Part shown: positions 29,954-64,000 of the stretch, in pieces
Layout of the letters: the number at the start of each line of letters is the position of its first letter
Position numbering within the stretch: position 1 is the first letter of the stretch
From: Hemileia vastatrix
Lineage: Eukaryota > Basidiomycota > Pucciniomycetes > Pucciniales > Zaghouaniaceae
Direction of reading: 5' to 3'
DNA length: 64,000 bases
Assembly: GCA_030280995.1 (NCBI GenBank)
Contig: JASXTE010000010.1
Span: forward strand, 21,345,823-21,409,822
Translations under genes and position numbers: made by a program
Notes under the pieces: model-generated
What the model was told of the DNA's origin: nothing
Databases searched by the model: none
Seen by the model: only the letters and a program-made list of their open reading frames with translations

Positions 29954-30755
29954 TGTCACCGGACGACCTACGCACAAGGTCGAGGATGTTCCTGTAAGTG
30001 AGATGAGGAGTTTAGAGACTTCTTTGAAGCACAGAGGAATGATTTGAGGAAGTGATTCGAAGATGACTCAAAGGAAGAACTACTGCTTTGAGTTATGTTC
30101 GAGAAGGAGTCTAATATAATTGAAAAGTAATATAAAAATTCTTAAGATCTCACAAAGGGTTGGAAACTCAACAATCAAAGATTTAGGATTTAGAAATGAT
30201 TATTGAGAAAATTAAGAAAGATACAATAATAATAATTTAACTTAAAAGCTTTTACCACTATTAACTATAAATATGTTTTATAATTTAATTCTAAAGAATA
30301 TCAAACCAAAAACCCAACCCCTTTTATATCCTTTACTCCTCCTCGCATTGACCTCATACCCATCCACTATTCCGCACACCACAGACCATTAAAATACATC
30401 TGTTACACCTGGACCCTCCTCACTAACATCCATTAACCCCTTAATCCTCTACTAACCATTCAGTCCATGCTCACTACCCCTTAATAACCCACAGACATTT
30501 CATAAACCTTTTAATGTACTATTATATTAACTATTGCACTGTGCGTCGCTTATTGAGAAAAAGACTAAGACACACTATTGAGAGAATGACTAATTTAGAT
30601 TTAGAGTTTAGGCTAGCGCGGTTGAATAGTGAGTACACAAAGGAAAGTCGCAGTTGCTATGGAGAATTGCTTTCTGCGCTTCAAGTATGGATTTGAGCCT
30701 CTTATTATTGATTTAATGAGCTGCTTTTGCCTTGAGTGTCACGTGGCGCATGACA
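29954..30755 (-). repeat. 3' LTR of copy B
   Basis: 802 bp, from TGTCACCGGACGACC to GGCGCATGACA. The antisense gene's ATG lies only 98 bp inside from this LTR, so its promoter is probably LTR sequence read in reverse. Confidence 0.9.
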
Positions 30756-37534: not shown

Positions 37535-38270
37535 CGCACAAGGTCAATGATGTTCCTGTAAGTGAGATGAGGAGTTTAGAGACTTCTTTGAAGCACAGAG
37601 GAATGATTCCAGGAGGTGATTCGAAGATGACTCGAAGGAAGAACTACTGCTTCGAGTTATGTTTGAGAAGGAGTCTAATATAATTGAAAGGTAATATTAA
37701 AATTCTTAAGATCTCATGAAGGGTTGGAAACTCAACAATCAAAGATTTAGGATTTAGAAATGATTATTGAGAAAATAAAGAAAGATACAATAAAAATGAT
37801 TTAGCTTAAAAGCTTTTACCACTATAAACTATAAATACGTTTTATAATTTAATTCTAAAGAATATTGAACCAAAAACCCAACCCCTTTTATATCCTTTAC
37901 TCCTCCTCCCATTGACCTTATACCCATCCACTATTCCGCACACCACAGACCATTAAAATACATCTGTTACACCTGGACCCTCCTCACTAACATCTGTTAA
38001 CCCCTTAATCCTCCACTAACCATTCCGTCCATGCTCACTACCCCTTAATAACCCACAGACATTTCATAAACCTTTTAATGTACTATTAAATTAACTATTG
38101 CGCTGTGCATTGCTTATTGAGAAAAAGACTAAGACACACTATTGAGAGACTGACTAATTTAGATTTAGAGTTTAGGCTAGCGCGGTTGAATAGCTAGTAC
38201 ACAAAGGAAAGTCGCAGTTGCTATGGAGAATTGCTTTCTGCGCTTGGAGTATGGATTTGAGCCTCTTATT
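37535..38270 (-). repeat. 5' LTR of copy B, first part (before H1)
   Basis: It starts at CGCACAAGGTC; the terminal 17 bp of the LTR and the whole gag leader are missing, so there is no primer binding site. It runs to ATT at 38268-38270, where Harbinger H1 is inserted. The remainder is 44348-44399. Confidence 0.88.
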
Positions 38271-38354
38271 AGGGGGTATCAATGTTCAGGGATCTGCAAT
38301 TAGGGATCAGGAATTTTTTTTTCCGGGATCAGACATTATTAATTGCGGAAGATT

Positions 38355-38386
38355 CTTATCCACTAGCCACGGGGCTAGTGGATAAG
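38355..38386. repeat. Subterminal hairpin of H1
   Basis: CTTATCCACTAGCC (38355-38368) and its exact complement (38373-38386) around ACGG: a 14-bp stem with a 4-nt loop near the transposase end. It may be a transposase recognition or cruciform site. Confidence 0.65.
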
Positions 38387-38650
38387 GAATCCACGATAAT
38401 GCATTATCCCGCCTCTTATACCCCAATTTCCATTCCTAATTCCTGATCCCAAACTCATCTCATCCATGATGGATTTGCAAGAAAGTCACATGACTCATAA
38501 TTGCTGATGCCATCCTTAAGTCTTTCCTCACTCTATGCTACTTAATTTTGGTGGCAAACACTTAAGTTTTTTTTCTATCTACACACCCCAACTGCACATT
38601 TGGCGGTGAATTCCCACTTCCCTCATCACATAACCCTTCCACCGGCAACA

Positions 38651-40093
38651 ATGAAACACCTCTCTACTAGACGGCTACTTCACTCCACTATTAATGCCAT
38701 CACTTTAATTTTAGTTCTCTACTATAAATCTGACTCTGATTTGGAAGATGCTTTAGCTTATATGTGTTTTCTTTCCAAAAAGTGTTACATCATCACCAGG
38801 GGGCCAAATCTTTATCATGATCCCCGATATGATCTGGCCTCCATTCTCAACATTCCTCATTTAAACTTCACACAACTTTTTAGAACATCTCCCGATTCTT
38901 TCTTCAAACTTTATCAACTCATCTCCGATCATCCTATCTTCCATAACAATTCTCATAACAAACAGCGTAATCCTGCCATCCAACTTGTTGTTGCTATTTG
39001 TCGCTTTGGCTCAAATGGAAATGGTGCTGCCGTAAGACGTTTGGATAATCTATTTAATATAGGATATGGTACCGTGATATTATACACCAAGCGCTGTATG
39101 ATTGCTATCCTTTCCCTCAAGTCTCAAACTCTTGCTTGGCCAACTCCAGAACAGCGACTTGAATCCTCTCAAGTAATGCAAGCTGAAGGTTTCCCTGGCT
39201 GTATAGGTTTTGTTGATGGCACAACTATACCTTTGAGTCAAATGCCTGCTCATGATGGCAGCCATTATTTTGATTGCAAAAAAAGGTTTCTTCAAAATCT
39301 TCTCCAAGTTCTCATCTTTCACAATCTAACTTTTTATCTTCTTTCTAGAAACTCTATTGCCGTTCAACTTGTATGCAATGTCAATAAAAAATTTATTGCT
39401 TTTCACAGTGGCTGCCCTGGATCATGTCATGACTCTTCCGTCTTCCAAAGAATGTGGATTTCTCAATTCCCTGAATCATACTTTGACGAATCTCAGTACC
39501 TCCTTGCAGACTCAGCATATGCAAGTGGAAAGTACATTATACCTGCTTTTTGTGGTACAACTTCAGAAAATGACCCCAAAACTGCCTTTAATTATCACCT
39601 TGCACAATCAAGAGTACAAATTGAACATGATATAGGTATTTTAAAGGGACGATTCTCTAGTCTTTGGGAGCTCAGAATCCAATTTCAAAAAAAATTGGAG
39701 ATCAAAACTGAAAATCATTGGATCTTGACTTGCGTAATACTCCACAATATTCTAGCTGATTTAAAGGATGAGTGGAATGATCTTTATGAAGAAGAGGATC
39801 CTGAACCACCACCGGCACTCCCCTCCCTTGATTCACAAATCATTCAATCAACTGGCATACGCTCCATTATAATGCGAATTACTCTCCAACATTTCACTTT
39901 GCAATGCTTTTTTTCTAATTTTAATGTTTTCATACTTTCCAAATGTCATCTTTGTGTACTTTATTCAATTGGTTTAGTATTTTGGTTTGTTGCATATTCA
40001 TTTTTTTTTTTTGAATTTACGGTGAATATCTTTTTTTTGGATGGCTCATTGGTTTTCTTTCACCAGCTCAACATGAAATCGCATATTTTCTGA
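38651..40093 (+). CDS. PIF/Harbinger DDE transposase of H1
   Basis: Cuts and joins the element ends. The start is taken at the first ATG (38651). A 63-nt intron (39286-39348, GTTTCT...TTCTAG) should be removed; being a multiple of three without stops, it can be misread as coding. The intron position equals that of H2. Catalytic residues are D in IGFVDGTTIPL, D in LADSAY and E in VQIEHDIGILKGRF; the GSCHDS motif is present. The homologous H2 protein ends soon after TLQHF, whereas here the frame runs on into Phe-rich sequence to 40093, probably after a small indel near 39900. Whether it is active is uncertain. Confidence 0.85.
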   Translation: MKHLSTRRLLHSTINAITLILVLYYKSDSDLEDALAYMCFLSKKCYIITRGPNLYHDPRYDLASILNIPHLNFTQLFRTSPDSFFKLYQLISDHPIFHNNSHNKQRNPAIQLVVAICRFGSNGNGAAVRRLDNLFNIGYGTVILYTKRCMIAILSLKSQTLAWPTPEQRLESSQVMQAEGFPGCIGFVDGTTIPLSQMPAHDGSHYFDCKKRFLQNLLQVLIFHNLTFYLLSRNSIAVQLVCNVNKKFIAFHSGCPGSCHDSSVFQRMWISQFPESYFDESQYLLADSAYASGKYIIPAFCGTTSENDPKTAFNYHLAQSRVQIEHDIGILKGRFSSLWELRIQFQKKLEIKTENHWILTCVILHNILADLKDEWNDLYEEEDPEPPPALPSLDSQIIQSTGIRSIIMRITLQHFTLQCFFSNFNVFILSKCHLCVLYSIGLVFWFVAYSFFFFEFTVNIFFLDGSLVFFHQLNMKSHIF

Positions 40094-41158
40094 AATTGCA
40101 TATTTTGTCAGTGATTTTTTTTTCATTCATCCCTCATATCCTTTTCCTATTCTCCTCCAACATCCCTTAAACAATTTGGTTTCATTCATTTTGTCATCTC
40201 ATCTCTCCAGGTAAGTCATTTTATCCATTTTTTTTGATTTTTTGATTACTAATTATATTTTTTTTTGTTTTTTCTGTTTATTTTATTTTTTTTATCAAAA
40301 TTTTTTTTGTAAGTGGTTATTTTGGATTTCAATGGTATAATTAACCTTTTTTTTCTCTCCCTCTTTACTTTCTTTTTTAGCTCCATCACCCTACTCTTCA
40401 TCCCTCCTTGGCATGGTCATTATCCCCCCTTTCCCTAATTTCACTTTTTTTTGGCTCCATTTCATTGAAACACATACATTGCACATTTTTTATGCATTTC
40501 ACTTACTCCATATTCAATTTCCCCACAATTCCAACATCAATCTTTCTCACTCTATTTTTCCTACTTTTCAATCAAGGTAAGTTTCATCTCCTTTTTTTCA
40601 TGCCTATATGATATCTCATTCCTTTTATGAAAACTTCATACTTAAATATATGTATGACTCTTATCTGGATAACAGTGAACTTATAAAACTCCTTTTGATC
40701 TCATCTTCATTACCACTTTTCAAGTTTTTGTAAAATTTTGAAAATCAGACTCGGAATTAGGGTTAGTTTTATTCAAATCTAATGTTCTTTTTACTGAAGA
40801 TTCTCCCGAAGGCTACCTTTCATTTCCTACAAACAGATTTGAATTTGATTTAGTGGTTGCTGAGATATTGACTGTTAAAGTTGAGCCTTTTTTTTCCCAA
40901 TTTAAATTTTTATTTCATTTTTTTATGTAACAAATTAGGGTTAGGTTTATTTAAATCACATATCCTTTAACTGAAGATTCTACTAAAGCATATCTTTCAT
41001 TTCCCTCAAACAGGTTTGAATTAGGTTCAGTGGTTGCTGAGATTTTGACTTTTGAAGTTGAGCCTTTTTTCCAAATTTCACTTGTCTTATTTCACATTTT
41101 TATATTGCATATTTAGAGGATAAGGATTCTGAAACTCTTATATGATTATTATCTAGAA
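40094..41158 (+). other. Intron-like and duplicated sequence between transposase and dioxygenase
   Basis: T-rich, with several AGGTAAGT-type donor sites (about 40211, 40574) and TTTTAG acceptors, suggesting non-coding or short 5' exons of the dioxygenase gene. 40752-40925 and 40930-41085 are a diverged tandem duplication of about 170 bp (shared TTAGGGTTAG, TACTGAAGATTC, GTGGTTGCTGAGAT, GTTGAGCCTTTTTT). Related sequence recurs at 44800-45000. Confidence 0.5.
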
Positions 41159-41785
41159 ATGTATTCTTTGCTCAAGAATATCACTAAAGCTCAAAAAGAT
41201 GAAGATTTTCGCTTATGGGACACTCTACCTTCCTTTAACTCTTTTCTTGCTTTTTGACTCAAAAAGCTCTGTAATAAAGCATTTGAAGAAAATCATGAAC
41301 TTGCAACCAAAGTTGGAATACCGAATTGGTGTGACTCCGAATGGAAAGATATCAGCCACAAATATCTTTTATTCTCTAATGTTATTATCACTTATTCTGG
41401 ATTCCACAATAGGATTCATATTGATAGGAATGATGCCAATTTTCTTACTTTTGGTATATTCTCATATATCAAACCGATTACTGGGCAACCAATACCATCT
41501 CCAGCTAAAATCAAAGGACTTGGTTTATATTTTCCAGACCACCGGTGCATCATTGATTTTGGTTTGGGAAATGGTATCATCGAAACTATTTGGAATTCTT
41601 CTAAGGATAATCATTAAACGACCAAAGCTCCTCCTGGTTTGGAATCCTGTCAAGATTTAACACATTTTGGTTGCTCATTTCAAATCAGTCATAAGTTGAT
41701 TCATAGAATCAATAAGTTAAAGAAAGAAGGTAAAGTTAATCAATTTAAAAAAACTTTATTTAGATCCAAAAAGTATGGCGATTAG
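41159..41785 (+). pseudogene. Tet/JBP-like 2-oxoglutarate/Fe(II) dioxygenase, degraded
   Basis: The frame from ATG 41159 gives LLKNITKAQKDEDFRLWDTL, a TGA (41255), then ELATKVGIPNWCDSEW, a core with HID (41417-41425; the H-x-D iron pair), TFGIFSYI, PSPAKIKG, FPDHRCIIDFGLGNGIIETIWNSS, a second His (41612-41614) and, after TAA (41615), THFGCSFQI. The order and spacing fit fungal Tet-like oxygenases, enzymes that oxidise methylated bases in DNA. It ends at TAG 41785. The N-terminal region seen in the second copy (62780-64000) is missing. Both copies share the same TGA. Family assignment is from motif memory; another 2OG oxygenase is possible. Confidence 0.7.
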
Positions 41786-42079
41786 AGTTGTCATCGAAAA
41801 TTCTATATTTTTTCATAAATTTTTAGTAAATATTTTTTATGTATCAATTTCCTCAACTAAAGTAATGGGCCAACAACCTTGTGTTGTATAAAAGGTAATT
41901 ATGATAACATTTATTTGTTTCATGGGGTTCCTCTAGCTTATACCTGTGGAAAGTCCCAAACTTTTGTTTCTAGACTTGGTCTGCATTTTGGCTTGAGGGA
42001 TTGTCATTACTTTAAACTAGGGAAAGTGATATATATTAGATATTTATTTAATAATTTATGTAATAATATTAAATTTAGA
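41786..42079 (+). other. Conserved dioxygenase 3' flank
   Basis: 41820-42080 recurs inverted at 62400-62660 and partly at 45825-45900 (AAGTAATGGGCCA). A 67-codon open stretch (41879-42082) contains VPLAYTCGKSQTFVSRLGLHF and its counterpart is also open at 62390-62599. It could be a terminal exon or a conserved UTR. Confidence 0.4.
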
Positions 42080-42500
42080 TGACTTTCACCCCTTACTTCA
42101 ATAAAATTCAGGGGGGGTATTGCCAAATTTTCAAATCTGACATGTGAAATTGATGACTTATAAAAATTTTGGTGATACCCACCCCTAGCTTCAATAAAAT
42201 GCAGGGGAGAGTATTGCCAATTTTTTAAAACAGATATAGAATTTTTTTGACTTGTAAATTTTTTGGTGAAATTGTTTTGGTGATACCCATCCCTTACTTC
42301 AATAAAATCCAGGGGGGGTATTGCCAAAATTTCTTATAAGACTAGTGAAATTCTTGACTTGTAAGAATTTTGGGGATACCGGTAAAATGCAGGGGGTAGT
42401 AAAGCCAAATTTTCATATAAGACTTTCAAGATTCATGACATGAAAGAATTTTTGTGATACCCACCCCTTACTTCAAAAAAATACAGGGGTGGGAGATTGT
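42080..42500. repeat. Array of short palindromic MITE-like units
   Basis: About five units of 80-110 bp, each starting CAGGGGGGTATTGCCAAATTT and ending AATTTTGGTGATACCCACCCCT, so each is an inverted repeat. The ends resemble the H1 TIR (AGGGGGTATCAA). The same array is present, inverted with its neighbours, at 61970-62400. Confidence 0.65.
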
Positions 42501-42646
42501 CAAATTTTTAAAGGAGACATGAAAATTTTATCTAAAAAAAGAATATTTAACATTAAAATACGAAATTTCAAGAAATACAGAAAATAATTGTAAAATTTAT
42601 GTACAAATAAATATGAACACATGAAGTGTGAAAGAAATAAAAGAAA

Positions 42647-43996
42647 CTAGTCAACAAAAAATTTCATTAAATGTTCTATTTCTTCAACAGATTTGTTTGC
42701 TTTAATGCATTCGATCAAGAAATCTTTCTTTTTAGAACTTTCTTGAAGATCATGCTTATACTTCATCTGTTCCATTAAGTTTTGATGCTCAAGTGTTTTT
42801 TCCTCTTTTTTGGATTTTTCAATACTAAGAGTTAACTCAAACTTCTTCTCCTCCAAATCTTGGACCCGATCATCCTTCCGTAAGGAGAGCTCGTACTTCC
42901 TCTCTTCCAAATCTTGTACTCTGTCATCCCTCCTTAAAGAGAGCTCGTATTTCTTCTTTTCAAAGCTTAGAGTCTCTTTAGCAATTTCCACTTGTTCTAG
43001 AGTGAGAATAAAAATTAACATAAAGTAGAAGAAAAGCAGTGTAAAGTGATAAGAGGTATGATATCACTTACCAGCATCACGTTTCTCTAAAAACTGTTCC
43101 ATCGAAGAAAAAGGTGTTTGTGATGAAGTATCACTTTTTCGTCTTCTTTGGGAGATGAAATTTAGACTACTTGAAGCCCTTTGCTTTTTGTTCAACGTAG
43201 CATTTTCCTCCTCATCATTGTCACTAGCTTCAGACTCAGTTGATTGAGGATCCTGGGTTTGTTCATCAGCCTTTTAAGAAATAAGAAAAAGATAAGTAAA
43301 TAAAAAATAGAAAAGATAAGATTAAAGGAAAAAGAAACAGACCTGAGTTAGATTTGGTTGGGTTAAATCACCTATAGGATCTACAGAAAAGCTATCTAGA
43401 TATGTCTCATTCAAATGAGGGGAGGCTTGAGTGGAGGAAGAGGATGGGAAAAGATTTGCTTCAACATCATGTTCAGGGATAGGATCTTCTCCATCCAACA
43501 TGTTTACAGGATTAAAATCGGCTCGCTCTCCAAAAATTGCATCCATCTCTTTAAAGTAAGGACATAAAGAATCAAGTTTATCGTCTATGGATTTTATGCC
43601 CTTAGTTATATTGTTGTCGGTAATCCCAAAACCAGTGGAAGATGAAAGAGCCTTTGCCTTCTTGTATTTTGCTTGGTAATGCTTGAAGCGTTCAGACATC
43701 TGTTTAGGCAAAAGATCAATCCTTCCCTTGGTCTTAGTGCGTAATTCATTTGCCATTAGAAGATAGCCATTAACTTTTGATGCGGGAGGCCGTCCTACTT
43801 TAGTGGCATACTCAGTACCAAAACAAGAATCATAGTTAGATTTGGTTTTCAGCCAGTTGATAAGAATGAGATGTTCATCTTTTTTTAATTGAACGGTCTT
43901 TGATTTCTCAGCTGAGCGGGGAAAAGAGGAAGTAGTGGGAATTGAAGAACAACTGGGTGATGGCTGCCTTTGAGAAGATCTAGGATGACAAGGCAT
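42647..43996 (-). CDS. Harbinger ORF2: Myb/SANT-like DNA-binding protein, three exons
   Basis: Exons 43996-43343, 43270-43072 and 42996-42647, joined by GT-AG introns, give an open frame of 400 residues. The N-terminal third (about residues 35-150: LKKDEHLILINWLKTKSNYD, MSERFKHYQAKYKKAK, TGFGI) looks like the Myb/SANT-type trihelix domain of Harbinger partner proteins, which bind the element ends and bring in the transposase. It is followed by LCPYFKEMDAIFGERADFNP. The third exon is a charged coiled coil made of 18-residue repeats (RKYELSLRKDDRVQDLEE), 2.4 copies here. It is convergent with the dioxygenase gene. This copy appears intact. Confidence 0.8.
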
Positions 43997-44331
43997 GTTA
44001 TTATAAATGAAGATGAAAAGGAGAAGAAACAAGCAGATGAGATAGCGAGATGAAAAGGAGAAGAATCAAATAGATGAAATGGGGAGAAATTCTGAGCGGA
44101 TAGAATGAACAGGATGGGATGAGAATGGAAGTGCGCAGAAAGGTAGAAGGCTGGGATATCCAGAAAGTTGTCCAAGATGTGGTTATCAAATATTGAGGAT
44201 AAAAATGTCAGATAAGAGGTGAAAATTGACACGTAAAGTGTCTAATAACCCAATTATTAGCAAAAATAATTGCGGAAGATAATTGGGGTATGCAGATTAT
44301 TTTCCGCAATCAATTTAATTGCGGATCGGTC
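43997..44331. other. H1 right subterminal region
   Basis: Promoter side of ORF2. It contains repeated AATTGCGGA words (44270-44325), matching the left end, which may be transposase or ORF2 binding sites. Confidence 0.5.
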
Positions 44332-44347
44332 AACATTGATACCCCCT

Positions 44348-44399
44348 ATTATTGATTTAATGAGCTGCTTTTGCCTCGAGTGTCACGTGGCGTGTGACA
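44348..44399 (-). repeat. 5' LTR of copy B, remaining 52 bp
   Basis: It continues the LTR interrupted at 38270 and ends GGCGTGTGACA. It is followed by the target duplication GGACT (44400-44404). Confidence 0.9.
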
Positions 44400-44445
44400 G
44401 GACTTAATCTAGAGCTGTGCTGAAGTTAACCCTAACCCTAGAATA

Positions 44446-45950
44446 GGGGGTGTCAAACATTACCATATACGCCTGGCAGACTTCAGTCTCAAAACACCGT
44501 TCCAAGATGCCATCATAAATAGCTTACTTGGGGTTAGACATGTCAAACATGAGGTCAAATACATCCTGCTCTTGCACCATTTCCCCAACCAAAATTCAGC
44601 CCACCAATACACAAATCCCCCCAATCTACTGCACATCAGATTCCTTCTCACTGAGCCCCATATTTTACATGTCCTCAAAATTTATGAATTTTTCTAAATC
44701 AACATTTTTGACTCAAATATTTATCTTCTTATCACAGTAAGTTCATTCCTATTTATTTCTTGAATAATCAATTTTTTCCAGCTGAATTTTTGATTCTTCC
44801 CTGCATCTTATGGTTGCTGAGATATTGACCTTAAAAGTTGAGCCTTCTTTTTTGCACTACTTCACTTTTTTTTTTTTTTTTTTTTTCTATGTCATTGATA
44901 CACATTTATAGCACATTCTTTATGCATTTCACTTGCTCCATATTCAATTTACCTTTGTTTTTCTTCTTTGATTTTGGGTTCCTCTAACCCATATCTCAGG
45001 TAAGTACTTCCTAATGTATATTTTACTTTGACTAACTTTTTTCCTTTTTTCCTTCCAAATTGCTTTGGAAACAGCTTCAGAACATCTCCTAACTTTTTCC
45101 AAGTGTATTTAGTTGACTTTTATTTATTTATTTATTTATTTTCTTAGAAACACTTTTAAAACATTTCCAAGATGTTTCTGAGATGTTTGCTAACATTTTT
45201 TTTGTTTTGTTTCAAAATCAGTTTGGAACAGTGCCAAGATGTTTCCTGCCTGTTTCAAAGTGTATTTGGTAAGTTTTTTTTTAATTTTTAATTTTTAATT
45301 TTTTTTTTGAAAAGCTTTAGAAACATTTCTGATACTTTTTCTAATTTTATTTCTTTATTTCTGAACTGCTTTGGAAACAGTGCCAGGATATGTCCTGCCT
45401 GTTTCTGAGTGCATTTGATAATTTATTTCTTGTCTTGAAAAAGCTTTGTAAATGTTTCTGAGATGATTCCAAGACTTTTCCTAATGATTTCTTTTTCTTT
45501 TTTTTCTTTCTAAATTGCTTCAGAAACAGTGCCAGGATGTTTCCTGCCTGTTTCTGAGTGCATTTCATAATTTATTTCTTGTCTTGAAAAAGCTTTGTAA
45601 ATGTTTCTGAGATGATTCCAAGACTTTTCCTAATGATTTCTTTTTCTTTTTTTTCTTTCTAAATTGCTTCAGAAACAGTGCCAGGATGTTTCCTGCCTGT
45701 TTCTGAGCAAATTTGGTAAGTTTTTATTTATTTATTTTAAGTATTGTAAATAAAGAATTTACTAAAGATTCATTTTTATTTCTTAAATTTATAATTAATC
45801 AGTCATTAAATATAATTATCAAATATAAGTAATGGACCATCAGTCCTTGCCACTGTATAAAGGTAATCATTCAAAAAATTAATTTATTGAATGAGTTCAC
45901 AATACAATTCCAGCTCAAATTTGTTCTTTTATTTCAGTAACGTTAGAACT
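44446..45950 (+). mobile_element. Rearranged Harbinger/dioxygenase-locus fragment
   Basis: It begins with a Harbinger-type end, AGGGGGTGTC, but no partner end was found. 44800-45000 resembles the stretch upstream of the H1 dioxygenase (GTTGCTGAGATATTGAC, TTTATGCATTTCACTTGCTCC). 45825-45880 resembles the sequence downstream of it. The dioxygenase itself is absent and a 149-bp tandem array sits in its place. Confidence 0.5.
45085..45727. repeat. Tandem repeat with 149-bp period
   Basis: The word TGCCAGGAT (or TGCCAAGAT) recurs at 45232, 45381, 45530 and 45679, exactly 149 bp apart, with CCTGCCTGTTTC following each time. The last two to three units are almost identical; an older unit is recognisable before 45232. 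The minus-strand open stretch 45347-45568 reflects the repeat. Confidence 0.85.
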
Positions 45951-49680: not shown

Positions 49681-49860
49681 AGGGGGTGTCAGTTCTGGCA
49701 AATCCGCACTTACAAATCCGCACTTAAATTTGACCAAATCCGCACTTAAATAAGTGCGGATTTCCAAAACACACTAGCCCCAATACTGGTGGATTTCAAA
49801 AGTGAAAAAAGTCACTTATTTCACTCAAATCCGCACTTTCTCAACCAAAAGTGCTGATTT
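49681..49860. promoter_or_regulatory. Left subterminal repeat cluster of H2
   Basis: AAATCCGCACTTA or its complement occurs about five times in 180 bp, with one or two variants. The right end (about 53030-53177) has a matching cluster, partly as AAATCAGCACTTA. Clustered subterminal motifs are typical binding sites for Harbinger transposition proteins. Confidence 0.7.
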
Positions 49861-49989
49861 CACCATCAAGTCCCATTTCACTGATTTGTCAGCATCATCC
49901 CATTCATACGCAGCACTCCACAGAATAACACTTCATAACTCAAAACATCGTACATCACTTACATCTTCATATCATATCATATAAGAGTC

Positions 49990-51249
49990 ATGCCTTCCTC
50001 ACTTTCAAATCGTGATAAATTACATAAAGCAATGACTTTCATGGCGCTTGAACTGCTCTTGGACTCTGATTCCGATTCTGATCTAGAAGAAGATTTTGTC
50101 GTTTTATCAAAAATGGCCAGGAAACGTTACCTTCTTCCCAGAAAGCCTCAAGTACTTCATACCCCCAAGTACACCATCCAAACACTTCTTAACCTATCTA
50201 CACCCAGTTTTAGACAGCTGTTCAGGACTTCTCAGGAATGTTTCCTTAAATTGCTTGAGCTTATTCAGGATCATCCCATATTTCACAATAATTCTCAAAA
50301 AGAACAACGACATCCTTCAATTCAATTGGCCATCACACTATGTCGTTTGGGTTCAAATGGTAATGGAGCTGCTTTGAAACGTTTAGAAAATGTCTTTGAT
50401 TTAGGGTATGGTTCAGTTAACACTTATACCAAACGATGTATCACTGCCATCAACTCCTTGGAATCTCAACTTCTCACCTGGCCAACAAAAGAAGAGCGAC
50501 TTGAATCATCTCAGGTTATGCAAGCAGAGGGCTTTCCAGGATGTATTGGTTTTGTTGATGGTACTACTATTCCTTTGAGCCAGAAACCTGCTCAAGGTGG
50601 AAACAATTACTTTGACCGTAAAAAGAGGTAGATTATTTTTAACTCCTTTCATCCTCCTTGAAACTAACACAAACAAATATATCTTCTTTATAGATATTCA
50701 ATTAACGTTCAGATTATATGTGATGTAAACAAAAAATTTATATCATTCTTCGCTGGCTATCCTGGCTCATGTCATGACTCCTACGTCTTCCAAAGAATGC
50801 ATATTTCAAATGAACCTGAAAAATTCTTTGATGAAAATCAGTATCTTCTTGCAGATTCTGCTTATGTGAATGGAAAGTATGTACTTCCTGCTTTTCGGGG
50901 AGCAGCTTCAGAAGACAGTCAAAATGCCAAATTCAACAATCATTTGGCAAAGTCAAGAGTCCGTATTGAACATTCTATTGGAATCTTGAAAGGCCGTTTT
51001 TCTAGTTTAAGGGAATTAAGAAGTCCTCTTAGAAATAAATCTGAAATGGAGGCGGTGATCAACTGGATTCTGTGTTGCACTATACTTCATAACCTACTTG
51101 CTGACCTCAAAGATCAATGGTTAGAGCTGTATGAAGATGAACAAGTTGATTCACCTCCGACTATATCCAACACTTCTATTTCTCAATCAACTAGTATAAG
51201 GGCGAAAATCCTTCCAATAACACTCCAACATTTTTCAACGCAATTTTAA
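49990..51249 (+). CDS. PIF/Harbinger DDE transposase of H2, two exons
   Basis: Exons 49990-50627 and 50694-51249, with a 66-nt GT-AG intron (GTAGAT...TTATAG), give 397 residues with no internal stop. The catalytic triad is D190 in IGFVDGTTIPL, D267 in LADSAY and E305 in RIEHSIGILKGRF; GSCHDS is at 237-242. The N-terminus has an acidic DSDSDSDLEED. The region around residues 60-150 (LNLSTPSFRQLFRTS, LCRLGSNGNGAALKRLENVFDLGYGSV) is the helix-turn-helix-like part of the family. The start is the first ATG in frame. It is well enough preserved to be a functional source for H1-like relatives. Confidence 0.92.
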
Positions 51250-51538
51250 TTTTTTTCTCTTTCTCTTCAAATTATCAATTTGCATGTATTATTCACTGAG
51301 AATGGTAAATTTTTTTGCATATTTTTTTGGTTTTTGAATTTGCTGTTAAAGTCTTATTTTTTTTTCTCTCTGTGTTTTCTTTCATCAACTCAACATGAAA
51401 TCGCATATTTTCAGCAAACGCATATTTTTTCAGTCACTCAAAGGTTGGGAAAGAGTTGGAAGGGACGATTAAGGGTTCTGAGGCATTTTAAATGAAGAAA
51501 AGGGTCTGGGAGAGGTTGAGAGGGGTGAAATGGGGATC

Positions 51539-52900
51539 AAAAGAGGATGGCATACAATGGGGCTGGGAGGATAGCGAAAGGCATGGGGAGGGAAGACAAG
51601 CATGTGTTGATAGAATTGAAAGGGATGGAGATTGGTGCAAACAGAGTGTGAAAATAGGAGGATGAACTCTGTTCTTCGGGCAAAGAACAGAGTTAACTTC
51701 CATAAAATATTAGCTGAAACATAGTTTTCAATTCTGTAAAAACAGTTGTAAGTAATCGAAAAAGTCACTGATTTTTTTTATATGTAATCCTTGCTTTACG
51801 AGGAGACTTTTGTGACGAAGCAGATTTTTGAGTTACCTTTAAAAGAGGATGGCATACAATGGGGCTGGGAGGATAGCGAAAGGCATGGGGAGGGAAGACA
51901 ATCATGTGTTGATAGAATTGAAAGGGATGGAGATTGGTGCAAACAGAGTGTGAAAATAGGAGGATGAACTCTGTTCTTCGGGCAAAGAACAGAGTTAACT
52001 TCCATAAAATATTAGCTGAAACATAGTTTTCAATTCTGTAAAAACAGTTGTAAGTAATAGAAAAAGTCACTGATTTTTTTTATATGTAATCCTTGCTTTA
52101 CGAGGAGACTTTTGTGACGAAGCAGATTTTTGAGTTACCTTTAAAAGAGGATGGCATACAATGGGGCTGGGAGGATAGCGAAAGGCATGGGGAGGGAAGA
52201 CAAGCATGTGTTGATAGAATTGAAAGGGATGGAGATTGGTGCAAACAGAATGTGAAAATAGGAGGATGAACTCTGTTCTTCGGGCGAAGAACAGAGTTCA
52301 CTTCCATAAAATATTAGCTGAAACATAGTTTTCAATTCTGTAAAAACAGTTGTAAGTAATAGAAAAAGTCACTGATTATTTTTATATGTAATCCTTGCTT
52401 TACGAGGAGACTTTTGTGATGAAGCAGATTTTTGAGTTACCCTTTGAGATTTGGAATGTCTGGGAGGCATTATGAAACTGGCACATAACAAGAAAAAAGA
52501 TTAAAAAGTAGAAGAAATAAGTAAAAAAGAATGTAAACATGCCTGGTCAAAATATTGAAAATGTTGGAAATTGGTGCAAACAGAATGTGAAAATAGGAGG
52601 ATGAACTCTGTTCTTTGGGCGAAGAACAGAGTTCACTTCCATAAAATATTAGCTGAAACATAGTTTTCAATTCTGTAAAAACAGTTGTAAGTAATAGAAA
52701 AAGTCACTGATTTTTTTTTCTATGTAATCCTTGCTTTACAAGGAGACTTTTGTGACGAAGCAGATTTTTGAGTTACCTTTTGAGATTTGGAATGTCTGGG
52801 AGGCATTATGAAACTGGCACATAACAAGAAAAAAGATTAAAAAGTAGAAGAAATAAGTAAAAAAGAATGTAAACATGCCTGGTCAAAATATTGAAAATGT
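51539..52900. repeat. Tandem repeats of 302 bp (three copies) plus 333-bp variants in H2
   Basis: AAAAGAGGATGGCATAC recurs at 51539, 51841 and 52143, exactly 302 bp apart, with very few differences. A further partial unit lies at about 52568-52775, bordered by two copies of a 125-bp segment (52443 and 52776). Each unit contains a hairpin AACTCTGTTCTT/AAGAACAGAGTT. The minus strand near 52470 and 52808 reads MPPRHSKSQ, resembling the ORF2 start, so the array expanded from the 5' end of ORF2. Confidence 0.9.
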
Positions 52901-53177
52901 CAGGAAGGGGTGTGTGCCGAGGATTGATGGGTAGGTAGCAAGGAAGGTCAGTGTGTCACATGTGACAGGGATGGGTTAAGAAAGGAAGGGATGTTTTGTG
53001 GCCAAAATGTGGTTGTGAAAAAAAACGGGAAAAAAGTGCTGATTTGAGGTCATAACTGACACCCTTTTTTGAAATAAGTGACTTTTTTGCAAAATTTAAG
53101 TGCTGATTTGTAAGTGCTGATTTGGTTTGAAATCCGCACTTAATTTAAGTGCGGATTTGCCAGAACTGACACCCCCT

Positions 53178-59787: not shown

Positions 59788-60810
59788 TAGATAGTTTACT
59801 TGTGTGCAAAGCAAACTATCTTATCTTGCCCAGTGCACAGAACCTCCATGTCTTAAGGACTGGAGTTGCCTTAAACCGCTTGAGATTCATTCTTTTCAAG
59901 GAGGATACCCCCTTCAGTTGTCTCATAGACTCTGGAGCTTCAATTTCTTTTGTCAGTTTATCTTTTTCCGAGAAGTTACAACTGACATTTACAGATATCA
60001 ATTGAACTCCAATTTACTTGGTCAAATCAGAGGAGCCCAAATATTGGGTAAGTAAGACAGTTTTATGTGTTTTCAACTTTCCGAACTTCCCCCCCTTCGA
60101 GTGGGAATTATCAGTCTTGGACGCCCCAAGGATGGACAATACCATTCTTGGCCATGACTTTTTAACGCATTGGAATCCTGAAATTAATTGGTCACGGGGA
60201 TTGATCACCCCTCCCACTAAGTATATTTCTGATTCTTCAATGCAGGTCAATAGGGAGTTAAACAACCCACCTGAAAATGTCCTTCTAGAGGACAAATCTC
60301 TGCCAGATGACTTGCAAGCATCTGATCTTTCTTTAAATGAGCAATCGGCTAACCCTTCTAGCTCAATGACTTCATTTGAAGAGGATTTAAATTGCCTTGA
60401 AGTAATCAAATTATGCTCTCTCAATTCTGGTCTTCCCTCGACAGATTCTCTCAATGATGATGAGGATGACCAAATTAATGTTGAAGCCATTAAATCAACT
60501 CTACTGGAAATCTATCATGATTTCCTTGATGTTTTCTCAATCTGAAAGGCCAATAAGTTACCACCTCACCGACCCTACAACCATCAGATAGATTTAATAG
60601 GTCCAGTACCTCTGGCAAGTCCTGTCTAATCTTTGTCGAAGGATGAATCTGAAGTTTTTCGAGACTACATTGCAGAGAATGTAGCCAAAGGTTTCATAAG
60701 AGCCAGTAAATCTCCAACCGGCTCCCCTGTTCTTTTTGTAAAGAAAAAGGATGGTAGTCTAAGATTGTGTGTTGACTATAGAAAGCTCAACACATTCACT
60801 AAGAAGAATT
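59779..60810 (+). pseudogene. pol: Protease and start of reverse transcriptase, copy C
   Basis: Protease LIDSGAS, then the linker (SLPDDLQASDLSLNEQ) and the first reverse transcriptase motif [19 protein letters not shown]. Stops occur at about 60003, 60543 and 60628. The frame then runs uninterrupted into Harbinger ORF2 sequence. Confidence 0.87.
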
Positions 60811-61804
60811 TTGGAGAGCGAGCCAATGTTAATCCTGTAAACATGTTGGATGGAGAAGATCCTATCTCCAAACATGATGTTGAAGCAAATCTTTTCCCAT
60901 CCTCTTCCTCCACTCAAGCATCCCCTCATTTGAATGAGACAAATCTAGATAGCTTTTCTGTAGATCCTATAGGTGATTTAACCCAACCAAATCTAACTCA
61001 GGTCTGTTTCTTTTTTCTTTTATCTTATCATTTCTATTTTTTATCTACTTATCTTTTTCTTATTTCTTAAAAGGATTATGAAAAAACACAGGATCCTCAA
61101 TCAACTGAGTTTGAAGGTAGTGACAATGATAAGGAGGAAAATATGACCATGAACAAGAAGAGTAGGGCTTCAAGTAGTCTAACTTTCTACTCACAAAGAA
61201 GACAAAAAAGCGATACTTCATCACAAACCCCTTTTTTGTCTATGGAACAATTTTTAGAGAAACGTGATGCTGGTAAGTGATACCATACCTCTTATTACTT
61301 TACTCTACTTTTCTTCCACTTTATATTAATTTTTATTATCACTCTAGAACAAGTAGAAATTGCTAAAGAGACTCTAAGCTTTGAAAAGAAGAAATATGAG
61401 CTCTCTTTAAGGAGGGATAATAAGCTACAAGATTTGGAAGAGAGAAATTATGAGCTCTCTATACGGAAGGATGATCAGGCTCAAGATTTGGAGGAGAGGA
61501 AGTACAAGCTCTCTTTTTGGAAGGATGATCAGGCCCAAGATTTGGAGGAGAGGAAGTACGAGCTCTCTTTACAGAAGGATGGTTGGGCCCAAGATTTGGA
61601 GGAGAAGAAGTTTGAGTTAACTCTAAGTATTGAAAATTTAAAAAAAGAGGAGAAAACACTCAAACATCAAAACCTATTAGAGCAGATGAAATATAAGTTT
61701 GATCATGAAGAAAATTCCAAAAAGAAAGATTTCTTGATAAATGTGTTAAAGCTAATAAATCTGTTGAGGAAATTGTACATTTAAAGAAATTGTTGGATGA
61801 CTAG
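60811..61804 (+). pseudogene. Harbinger ORF2 fragment with expanded coiled-coil repeats
   Basis: It starts inside exon 1 at [19 protein letters not shown] (the DNA-binding part is missing). Exon 1 ends at 61001; exon 2 is 61074-61272 (199 nt, as in H1) and exon 3 starts at 61348, with the same GT-AG sites. Exon 3 has 4.4 copies of the 18-residue repeat (RKYELSLxKDDxAQDLEE), against 2.4 in H1. A one-base loss near 61742 shifts the end; the ancestral stop is TAG 61802-61804. Confidence 0.82.
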
Positions 61805-62779: not shown

Positions 62780-64000
62780 ATGACTGATTTGAAATGAGCA
62801 ACCAAAATTTGTTAAATCTTGACAGGATTCCAAACCAGGAGGAGCTTTGGGATTTGGTGGAAAGAATGTTTATTTTTTATTTTTTATTTTTTATTTAATG
62901 ATTATCCTTAGAAGAATTCCAAATAGTTTCGATGATACCATTTCCCAAACCAAAATCAATGATGCACCGGTGGTCTGGAAAGTATAAACCATGTCCTTTG
63001 ATTTTAGCTGGAGATGGTATTGGGTAGCCAGTTATTGGATTGATATATGAGAATATACCAAAAGTAAGGAAATTGGCATCATTCCTATCAATATGAATCC
63101 TATTGTGGAATCCAGGATGATTGATAATAACATTAGAAAATAAAAGATATTTGTGGCTGATATCTTCCCATTTGGAGTCACACCAATTCGGTATTCCAAC
63201 TTTGGTTGCAAGTTCATGATTTTTTTCAAATGCTTTATTACAGAGCTTTTTGAGTCAAAAAGCAAGAAAAGAGTTAAAGGAAGGTAGAGTGTCCCATAGG
63301 CAAAAATCTTCATCTTTTTGAGCTTTAGTGATATTCTTTACCAACAAATATATGCCTATATAAATGAAATAAGTGAAATGATATTAAGAATGGAAAAAAA
63401 ATTTTTAGACATAACAAGAGAATATCCTTTAACAAAACCTGGTCTCCAACCAAATCCAATCATGATACCATCCAACAAATTTGTATTCCTTATAGGTAAT
63501 TGAACCAAAGCCTTTTGATAAAGAGTTATGATAAGATCCGATAGTTGATTAAAAGTTTCATCTTTTACACCATCATATGAATGAACTTCCAAAATGAATT
63601 GAGCCTTATAAGAATTACTGATAACTGCAACAACTCAATCATCTCCAAATTCGGTTAGATATTTGATATCTTCTGGTAATTTTTTCGGAAATTGAATTTT
63701 TTTATCTACTTTAGTTTTATGAAAAAAAATGTTTGGGATATGACCAAAATAACTTTCACATAGAATTTTTTTTTCAGATATCTTTTCTTCTGATAAAACT
63801 GATTATCTTTAATTTTTTTGAAGATTTAGATAATGAGCTTTTTTTTTTCAGATAGCTTTTCTTCTTATGAGATTGATTATCTTTAATTTTAATGAATGAT
63901 TTAGAAGAAGAATTTTTTTTCCGCATATCTTTTATTCTGATCAGACTGATTATCATTAATTTTTTTGAATGATTTAGAAGATGATTGTATTGAAGTTGAT
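62780..64000 (-). pseudogene. Tet/JBP-like dioxygenase, second copy with N-terminal region
   Basis: Minus strand. Upstream of the core it retains sequence absent from H1: a Lys/Ser-rich start (63956-63774), YFGHIPNIFFHK, KLPEDIKYLTEFGDD, a TGA, then AQFILEVHSYDGVKDETFNQL and LLDGIMIGFGWRPGFVKGYSL; the GWR motif is typical of fungal Tet-like proteins. The core repeats NWCDSKW, HNRIHID (H-x-D at 63095-63087), FPDHRCIIDFGLGNGIIETIW, the distal His, then an A/T-rich microsatellite insertion and NFGCSFQI. A TGA (63257-63255) is shared with H1. Frame breaks near 63340-63360 may include an intron. Confidence 0.7.
63776..64000 (-). repeat. Short tandem repeat in the dioxygenase N-terminus, period about 68 bp
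   Basis: Three diverged units share ATATCTTTTCTTCTGAT and CTGATTATCTTTAATTTT. Read on the minus strand they encode Lys/Ser-rich sequence (KIKDNQSHKKKSYL). The array runs off the window. Confidence 0.6.

What the first reader, a model, noticed from the sequence alone, without database searches (positions are those of the whole stretch)
38271..44347. PIF/Harbinger transposon carrying a TET/JBP-like dioxygenase
One bounded element (perfect 16-bp TIRs, ATT duplication, empty site known from the sister LTR) contains a DDE transposase, a Myb-like ORF2 and a degraded gene with an H-x-D...H iron site in Tet-like context (NRIHID, IIDFGLGNGIIETIW, THFGCSFQI). Known: fungal TET/JBP expansions are linked to KDZ-type transposons in basidiomycetes. 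A Harbinger element with such cargo is, as far as I know, not a described arrangement. A transposon-borne 5-methylcytosine oxidase would be a plausible anti-silencing tool.
Basis: partly seen in the sequence, partly recalled or inferred. Interest (0 to 1): 0.9.

Follow-up and report, generated by a model that had tools for sequence, protein, structure and literature searches.

The report
Harbinger-type transposon carrying TET-like gene
This is one decayed copy of a fungal jumping-gene family that carries, beside its transposase, a gene resembling the enzymes that oxidise methylated DNA; the general arrangement was published in December 2025, but this family has a different insertion signature and its genome shows the gene being kept, exchanged and trimmed.

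Summary
Window 38271-44347 is a complete element: perfect 16-bp inverted repeats, 3-bp ATT duplication, DDE_Tnp_4 transposase, a Tet-like 2OG-Fe(II) oxygenase fragment (PF20515, E 8e-23) and a weakly Myb-like ORF2. The window's own 748-Mb genome holds at least 17 further near-full-length copies (95.5-97.8%); all 18 carry the oxygenase segment. A longer sister family carries the two-exon gene, and other Harbinger families carry the same cargo. TET cores diverged between families under strong constraint (dN/dS 0.04-0.22, six pairs). The window copy is degraded: exon 1 is missing family-wide and two in-frame stops interrupt exon 2; 8 of 18 copies have exon 2 open. New here: duplications are 3-bp AWT (19 of 20 elements; two empty sites), not PHISTA's TA nor canonical TWA; TET was replaced between otherwise close Harbinger families; and one subfamily multiplied without TET exon 1. 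Anti-silencing is the likeliest mechanism but inferred; no enzyme activity was tested, and a host methyltransferase could not be placed.

The parts
38268..38270 (.). target site duplication ATT, left
   Evidence: identical to 44348-44350; empty site at 30666-30747
38271..38286 (+). left terminal inverted repeat AGGGGGTATCAATGTT
   Evidence: the same sequence at the ends of the sister copies
38651..39892 (+). DDE transposase; intron about 39286-39348 by inspection; no internal stop up to 39892
   Evidence: DDE_Tnp_4 E 8.1e-23; 53% to H2 transposase
40294..41136 (.). family A-specific segment in place of TET exon 1; contains a 177-bp tandem repeat
   Evidence: absent from family B copies, which match H1 on both sides of it
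41159..41785 (+). TET-like oxygenase, exon 2 only, with in-frame stops at 41255-41257 and 41615-41617 in this copy
   Evidence: PF20515 E 8.1e-23 on 41258-41614; 8 of 18 family copies without stop or indel
42650..43996 (-). ORF2: open N-terminal part 43331-43996, further open pieces 43067-43273 and 42650-43063
   Evidence: Myb_DNA-bind_4 E 0.009, below cut-off
44332..44347 (-). right terminal inverted repeat
44348..44350 (.). target site duplication ATT, right
30666..30747 (+). empty site in a sister LTR
   Evidence: gap-free match to the 3-bp model, 96.3%
49681..53177 (+). H2: TET-less and ORF2-less internal-deletion derivative of a TET+ Harbinger family (C), TSD AAT
   Evidence: 99.1% (49681-51439) and 98.9% (52730-53177) to the ends of the element in L029
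60809..64000 (-). T2: fragment of family B with TET exons 1 and 2 (both interrupted) and the 3' part of ORF2
   Evidence: 85.6% to H1 41137-43535, 86.8% to L030; PF20515 E 4.7e-21 on 62898-63254; stops

Best explanation
H1 is a recent, decayed copy of a Harbinger-superfamily (PHIS) DNA transposon whose regular gene set is transposase, Tet-like oxygenase and ORF2. Shown: the boundaries, the 3-bp AWT duplication, the three genes, a multi-copy family, a full-length sister family, the same gene order in other families, and long-term constraint on the oxygenase core. Inferred: the transposase with ORF2 moves the element by cut and paste; the oxygenase made by intact copies oxidises 5-methylcytosine (or a related base) on element DNA, so that the element stays transcribed and loses fewer CpGs; copies such as H1 with a truncated oxygenase are moved and shielded by intact relatives in trans.
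For: PF20515 and DDE_Tnp_4 hits. 18 of 18 H1-type copies hold the segment. Family B has the same TIRs and a two-exon TET; L030 is open in both exons and L029 has an open 393-codon frame. Same order transposase-TET-ORF2 in L029, L030, L032, L034. TET-core dN/dS 0.04, 0.14, 0.15, 0.16, 0.19, 0.22 in the six family pairs. H-x-D and distal H invariant in 7 of 7 rows. CpG observed/expected 0.38 and CpG transitions at 0.335 against 0.111 per site elsewhere, as expected if CpGs are methylated. TE-borne TET as anti-silencing is also Kojima's reading.
Against: No activity data. Family A multiplied without exon 1, so TET in cis is not needed for spread. Inside families change is near neutral (ratios 0.59-1.16). 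TET exon 1 is loosely constrained (0.52). CpG decay goes on in copies of a TET family. Eight methyltransferase (PF00145) matches lie on four contigs that could not be read, so a host 5mC writer is not established. The protein has no sequence hit in the PDB.
Confidence: 0.7

Rival explanations
1. Passenger: the oxygenase was caught by chance and is carried along without function.
For: In family A it lacks exon 1, 10 of 18 copies carry stops in exon 2, and change inside families is near neutral.
Against: Constraint between families (dN/dS 0.04-0.22); conserved place and orientation; open frames in L029 and L030; about 88 of 150 scored PF20515 hits without internal stop (hand count).
Confidence: 0.12
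2. Known PHISTA: the family belongs to Kojima's PHISTA, and the TA duplication given for PHISTA is the inner part of AWT|A...T|AWT flanks.
For: The flanks here also show TA on both sides if the outer TIR base is counted; same three-gene make-up; the third protein was called non-Myb there and is only weakly Myb-like here; the transposase groups with rust Harbinger proteins.
Against: The empty sites here exclude a 2-bp duplication. Figures and supplementary sequences of that paper were not seen, so its termini could not be compared.
Confidence: 0.4
3. The oxygenase serves another end: it acts on host DNA or on a different base (glyceryl-methylcytosine, thymine or methyladenine chemistry) or regulates transposition itself.
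For: Kojima notes that other activities cannot be excluded for this type; its nearest solved relatives by structure include CMD1.
Against: Presence in many families of one genome suggests benefit to the transposon, not the host; nothing here points to another substrate.
Confidence: 0.2

Closest known systems
TET+ PHISTA Harbinger families of Puccinia and Austropuccinia psidii (Kojima 2025, PMC12730594; abstract and named sections read)
   Same: Harbinger transposase, TET/JBP dioxygenase and a third protein in one rust-fungus element.
   Different: TA duplications reported there; 3-bp AWT here by empty sites. Exchange of TET is reported there between superfamilies, here between close Harbinger families.
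Pangu (Harbinger2) group of PHIS (Han et al. 2015, PMC4482050; passages and sections 5 and 6 read)
   Same: ANT duplications and TIRs starting AG.
   Different: No oxygenase described; average autonomous length about 3.5 kb against 6.1-8.2 kb here. No Pangu sequence was available for a tree.
TET-bearing KDZ elements (Dileera, Kyakuja, Zisupton; as described in PMC12730594)
   Same: Transposon-borne TET/JBP dioxygenase in basidiomycetes.
   Different: Other transposase; 8-bp duplications reported for Zisupton-1_PGr.

Membership tests
PHIS / Harbinger superfamily | DDE_Tnp_4-type transposase | tested here: met
   E 8.1e-23 for H1, 1.5e-26 for H2
PIF/Harbinger group (Han et al. 2015) | TWA target duplication | tested here: not met
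   AAT or ATT in 19 of 20 complete elements (L021 counted with its outer TIR, with the inner one 18 of 20); empty sites of H1 and H2
PIF/Harbinger group (Han et al. 2015) | second protein with Myb/SANT domain | tested here: inconclusive
   Myb_DNA-bind_4 best but below cut-off in 8 of 8
Pangu group | ANT target duplication | tested here: met
   only AAT and ATT seen
Pangu group | TIR starting AG or GG | tested here: met
   AGGGGG at both families' ends
Pangu group | transposase inside the Pangu clade | not tested
   no reference sequences at hand
PHISTA | TA target duplication | tested here: not met
PHISTA | TET/JBP gene and a third protein beside the transposase | tested here: met
PHISTA | transposase inside the PHISTA clade | not tested
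   H1 and H2 fall among rust proteins, which are not labelled as PHISTA or other
TET/JBP-like 2OG-Fe(II) oxygenase | family profile match | tested here: met
   PF20515, E 8.1e-23 in H1, 3e-32 in L029
TET/JBP-like 2OG-Fe(II) oxygenase | H-x-D and distal H iron ligands | tested here: met
   invariant in 7 of 7 rows
TET/JBP-like 2OG-Fe(II) oxygenase | double-stranded beta-helix fold | tested here: inconclusive
   model of a 119-residue piece had mean pLDDT 45.7
TET/JBP-like 2OG-Fe(II) oxygenase | oxidation of 5-methylcytosine | not testable with these tools
   needs a biochemical assay

The most novel reading that the evidence does not exclude
In this fungus a Tet-like oxygenase is a standard, exchangeable anti-silencing module of an AWT-targeting Harbinger lineage: families exchange TET genes while keeping transposase and ORF2, and trimmed forms (family A without exon 1, H2 without TET) multiply as parasites of TET made by others, so that the supply of TET helped to shape a 748-Mb genome.
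Probability: 0.3. Interest if true: 0.7.

Novelty: new variant of a known kind. Interest (0 to 1): 0.45.

Why it matters
One genome offers a natural series on otherwise similar transposons: full TET, truncated TET, no TET, exchanged TET, with copies that can be dated. That makes the proposed anti-silencing role of transposon-borne TET genes testable by comparing methylation, transcription and CpG decay between copies that differ in TET. It also asks for a second look at the TA duplication that defines PHISTA.

Tried and rejected
Protein-database searches with TET pieces found nothing (1 candidate, none significant; 45 candidates, none significant), although rust transposases are held there. 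PDB sequence searches found no relative of TET, ORF2 or transposase. An AlphaFold2 model of the 119-residue window piece had mean pLDDT 45.7 and was not used. Selection inside and between families A and B was inconclusive: 12 codons of TET exon 2 fixed, 4 synonymous and 8 non-synonymous. 'Majority stop' means the most frequent single codon; one search shows stops at codon 32 in 6 of 18 A copies and at 194 in 5 of 10 B-group copies. One search ended in an error after its TET rows; its ORF2 rows rested on a wrong cut and were replaced. A count of TIRs in the genome and a second methyltransferase-domain search did not complete. Considered and rejected: TET as a nested transposon of its own (the same TIRs enclose it in families A and B); chance similarity (E-values).
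Full report
What is there. The element at 38271-44347 has perfect 16-bp TIRs and an ATT duplication. Joining its flanks with a 3-bp duplication gives a sequence matched without gap by the sister LTR at 30666-30747; a TA duplication leaves a 3-nt gap. The other three sister LTRs carry one or two gap positions under 3 bp and two or three under TA. H2 (49681-53177) gives the same answer at 589-510: no gap under 3 bp, three under TA. The three genes are a DDE_Tnp_4 transposase, a PF20515 'Tet-like' oxygenase piece and ORF2.

The family. The window lies in a 747.6-Mb, 791-contig assembly without name. That DNA search scored 28 of 15,517 first-look candidates and listed 60 matches, so counts are lower bounds. 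I read 18 H1-type copies (L001-L018, the window copy included) and ten loci of the second kind (L019-L028). The 17 others are 95.5-97.8% identical to H1; some are incomplete at one end. All 18 hold TET exon 2; 8 of 18 have neither internal stop nor indel there, and 6 of 18 run open from ATG to stop over 208 codons. Of the window copy's two stops, the one at codon 32 occurs in 6 of 18 copies and the one at codon 152 only in this copy among the 18 (T2 has both). Mean pairwise difference is 2.9%, with 914 private and 226 shared variants, as after a burst.

The longer sister, family B. L019, L020, L021, L023, L024 and L025 are complete, 7.3-8.2 kb, with the same TIRs, 88.7-92.3% identity to H1 in the left part and 91.8-93.8% from TET exon 2 to the right end. 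L021 has two possible left ends, 127 bp apart. Between the two parts lie about 2 kb with TET exon 1, where family A has an unmatched segment of about 843 bp. Of the nine loci among L019-L028 with exon 1, none is open in both exons (92 codons of exon 1 examined); L030, fetched later, is open in both. Over 20 complete A and B elements the 3-bp flank is identical in 19, if the outer end of L021 is taken, and in 18 otherwise; L009 does not match.

Other families. A PF20515 search of the genome scored 150 of 10,849 first-look candidates; all 150 passed the cut-off, and none of 14 control genomes rang. About 88 of 150 have no stop inside the match by my hand count. All seven have Harbinger transposase and/or ORF2 sequence beside TET: both in L029, L030, L032 and L034, ORF2 in L031 and L035, transposase in L033. 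L029 holds a complete family C element, 6473 bp, TSD AAT, with an open 393-codon TET frame, ORF2 and a transposase that has at least one stop in this copy. Its ends and transposase are those of window H2, which has lost the middle (99.1% and 98.9% at the two sides). L034 shows a further family (D) in the same order. L033 and L035 belong together (E; 91-96% over their longest matches). L032's flanks did not give a clean duplication.

Constraint. Between families the TET core changes mostly at silent sites: dN/dS 0.04 (B-C), 0.16 (B-D), 0.14 (B-E), 0.19 (C-D), 0.22 (C-E), 0.15 (D-E), though several silent distances are near saturation. ORF2 gives 0.09-0.19 in seven of ten pairs, 0.44 for the very close A-B pair, and two are saturated. 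The transposase end gives 0.13 for C-D but 0.58 and 0.64 for A-E and B-E and 2.18 for the very close A-B pair; six of ten pairs are saturated. TET exon 1 is looser (0.52). Inside families change is near neutral (0.59-1.16).

Exchange. Family E shares ORF2 with A and B at 91-92% amino-acid identity (dS 0.45-0.47) and the transposase end at 74-78% (dS 0.22-0.27), but its TET core is 60% identical to B's with dS above 2. B and C, distant in transposase (63%) and ORF2 (58%), have TET cores 85% identical. So TET was replaced in at least one of B and E. No donor was found, and one E locus supplied the transposase while the other supplied ORF2 and TET.

Mechanism. Cut-and-paste movement by transposase and ORF2 is inferred from the superfamily. 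The TET-like enzyme most likely oxidises 5mC on element DNA. CpG is depleted in the window (0.38), and CpG sites in family A changed about three times as fast as other C:G sites (0.335 against 0.111 per site). The writer of the mark is not settled: eight PF00145 matches (8 of 8 candidates) lie on contigs C228, C561, C74 and C350, none on the contigs that carry the TET hits; I could not fetch them, so they may be host or foreign.

Against the literature. PMC12730594 was found; I read its abstract, methods, results 3.1 and 3.4, the first part of the discussion and the figure legends, not its figures or supplements. It reports TET+ Harbinger with TA duplications and a non-Myb third protein, and transfer of TET between transposon superfamilies. 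PMC4482050 (passages and sections 5 and 6) gives TWA for PIF/Harbinger and ANT for Pangu. The elements here fit Pangu by target and TIR start, fail TWA and TA, and resemble PHISTA by gene content. No other paper on TET-bearing Harbinger elements appeared in the listings; most subscription papers are not held there.

Host. H1 and H2 transposases group with Puccinia striiformis and P. coronata proteins (11 rows, SH-aLRT 99) and, wider, with Austropuccinia and Phakopsora (17 rows, 95); 79 of 120 database hits were used. A rust fungus is likely; the genus is unknown.

Noticed in passing
49681-53177: A second Harbinger element (H2) is an internal-deletion derivative of TET-bearing family C; TET and ORF2 are gone and about 302-bp tandem repeats fill 51539-52900.
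   Followed up: partly
60630-61070: An open frame runs from what looks like retrotransposon reverse transcriptase (recognised by eye, no profile run) in frame into the ORF2 of the family B fragment; junction near 60809.
   Followed up: no
44445-44953: A TIR-like start (AGGGGGTGTCAAACATTACC) just right of H1 without a partner found; 44811-44953 is 79-85% similar to the family A-specific segment inside H1.
   Followed up: no
45350-45707: A 149-bp tandem repeat, 2.4 copies, 95% matches.
   Followed up: no
G000 contigs C228, C561, C74, C350: All eight DNA methyltransferase (PF00145) matches of the assembly lie on these four contigs, at coordinates under 126 kb; host genes or foreign contigs is open.
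   Followed up: partly
L032:1227-9706: A family C element sits inside an A-like Harbinger element: one TET-bearing family nested in another.
   Followed up: no
L033, L035: Harbinger family E: transposase and ORF2 close to families A and B but a TET core only 60% identical.
   Followed up: partly
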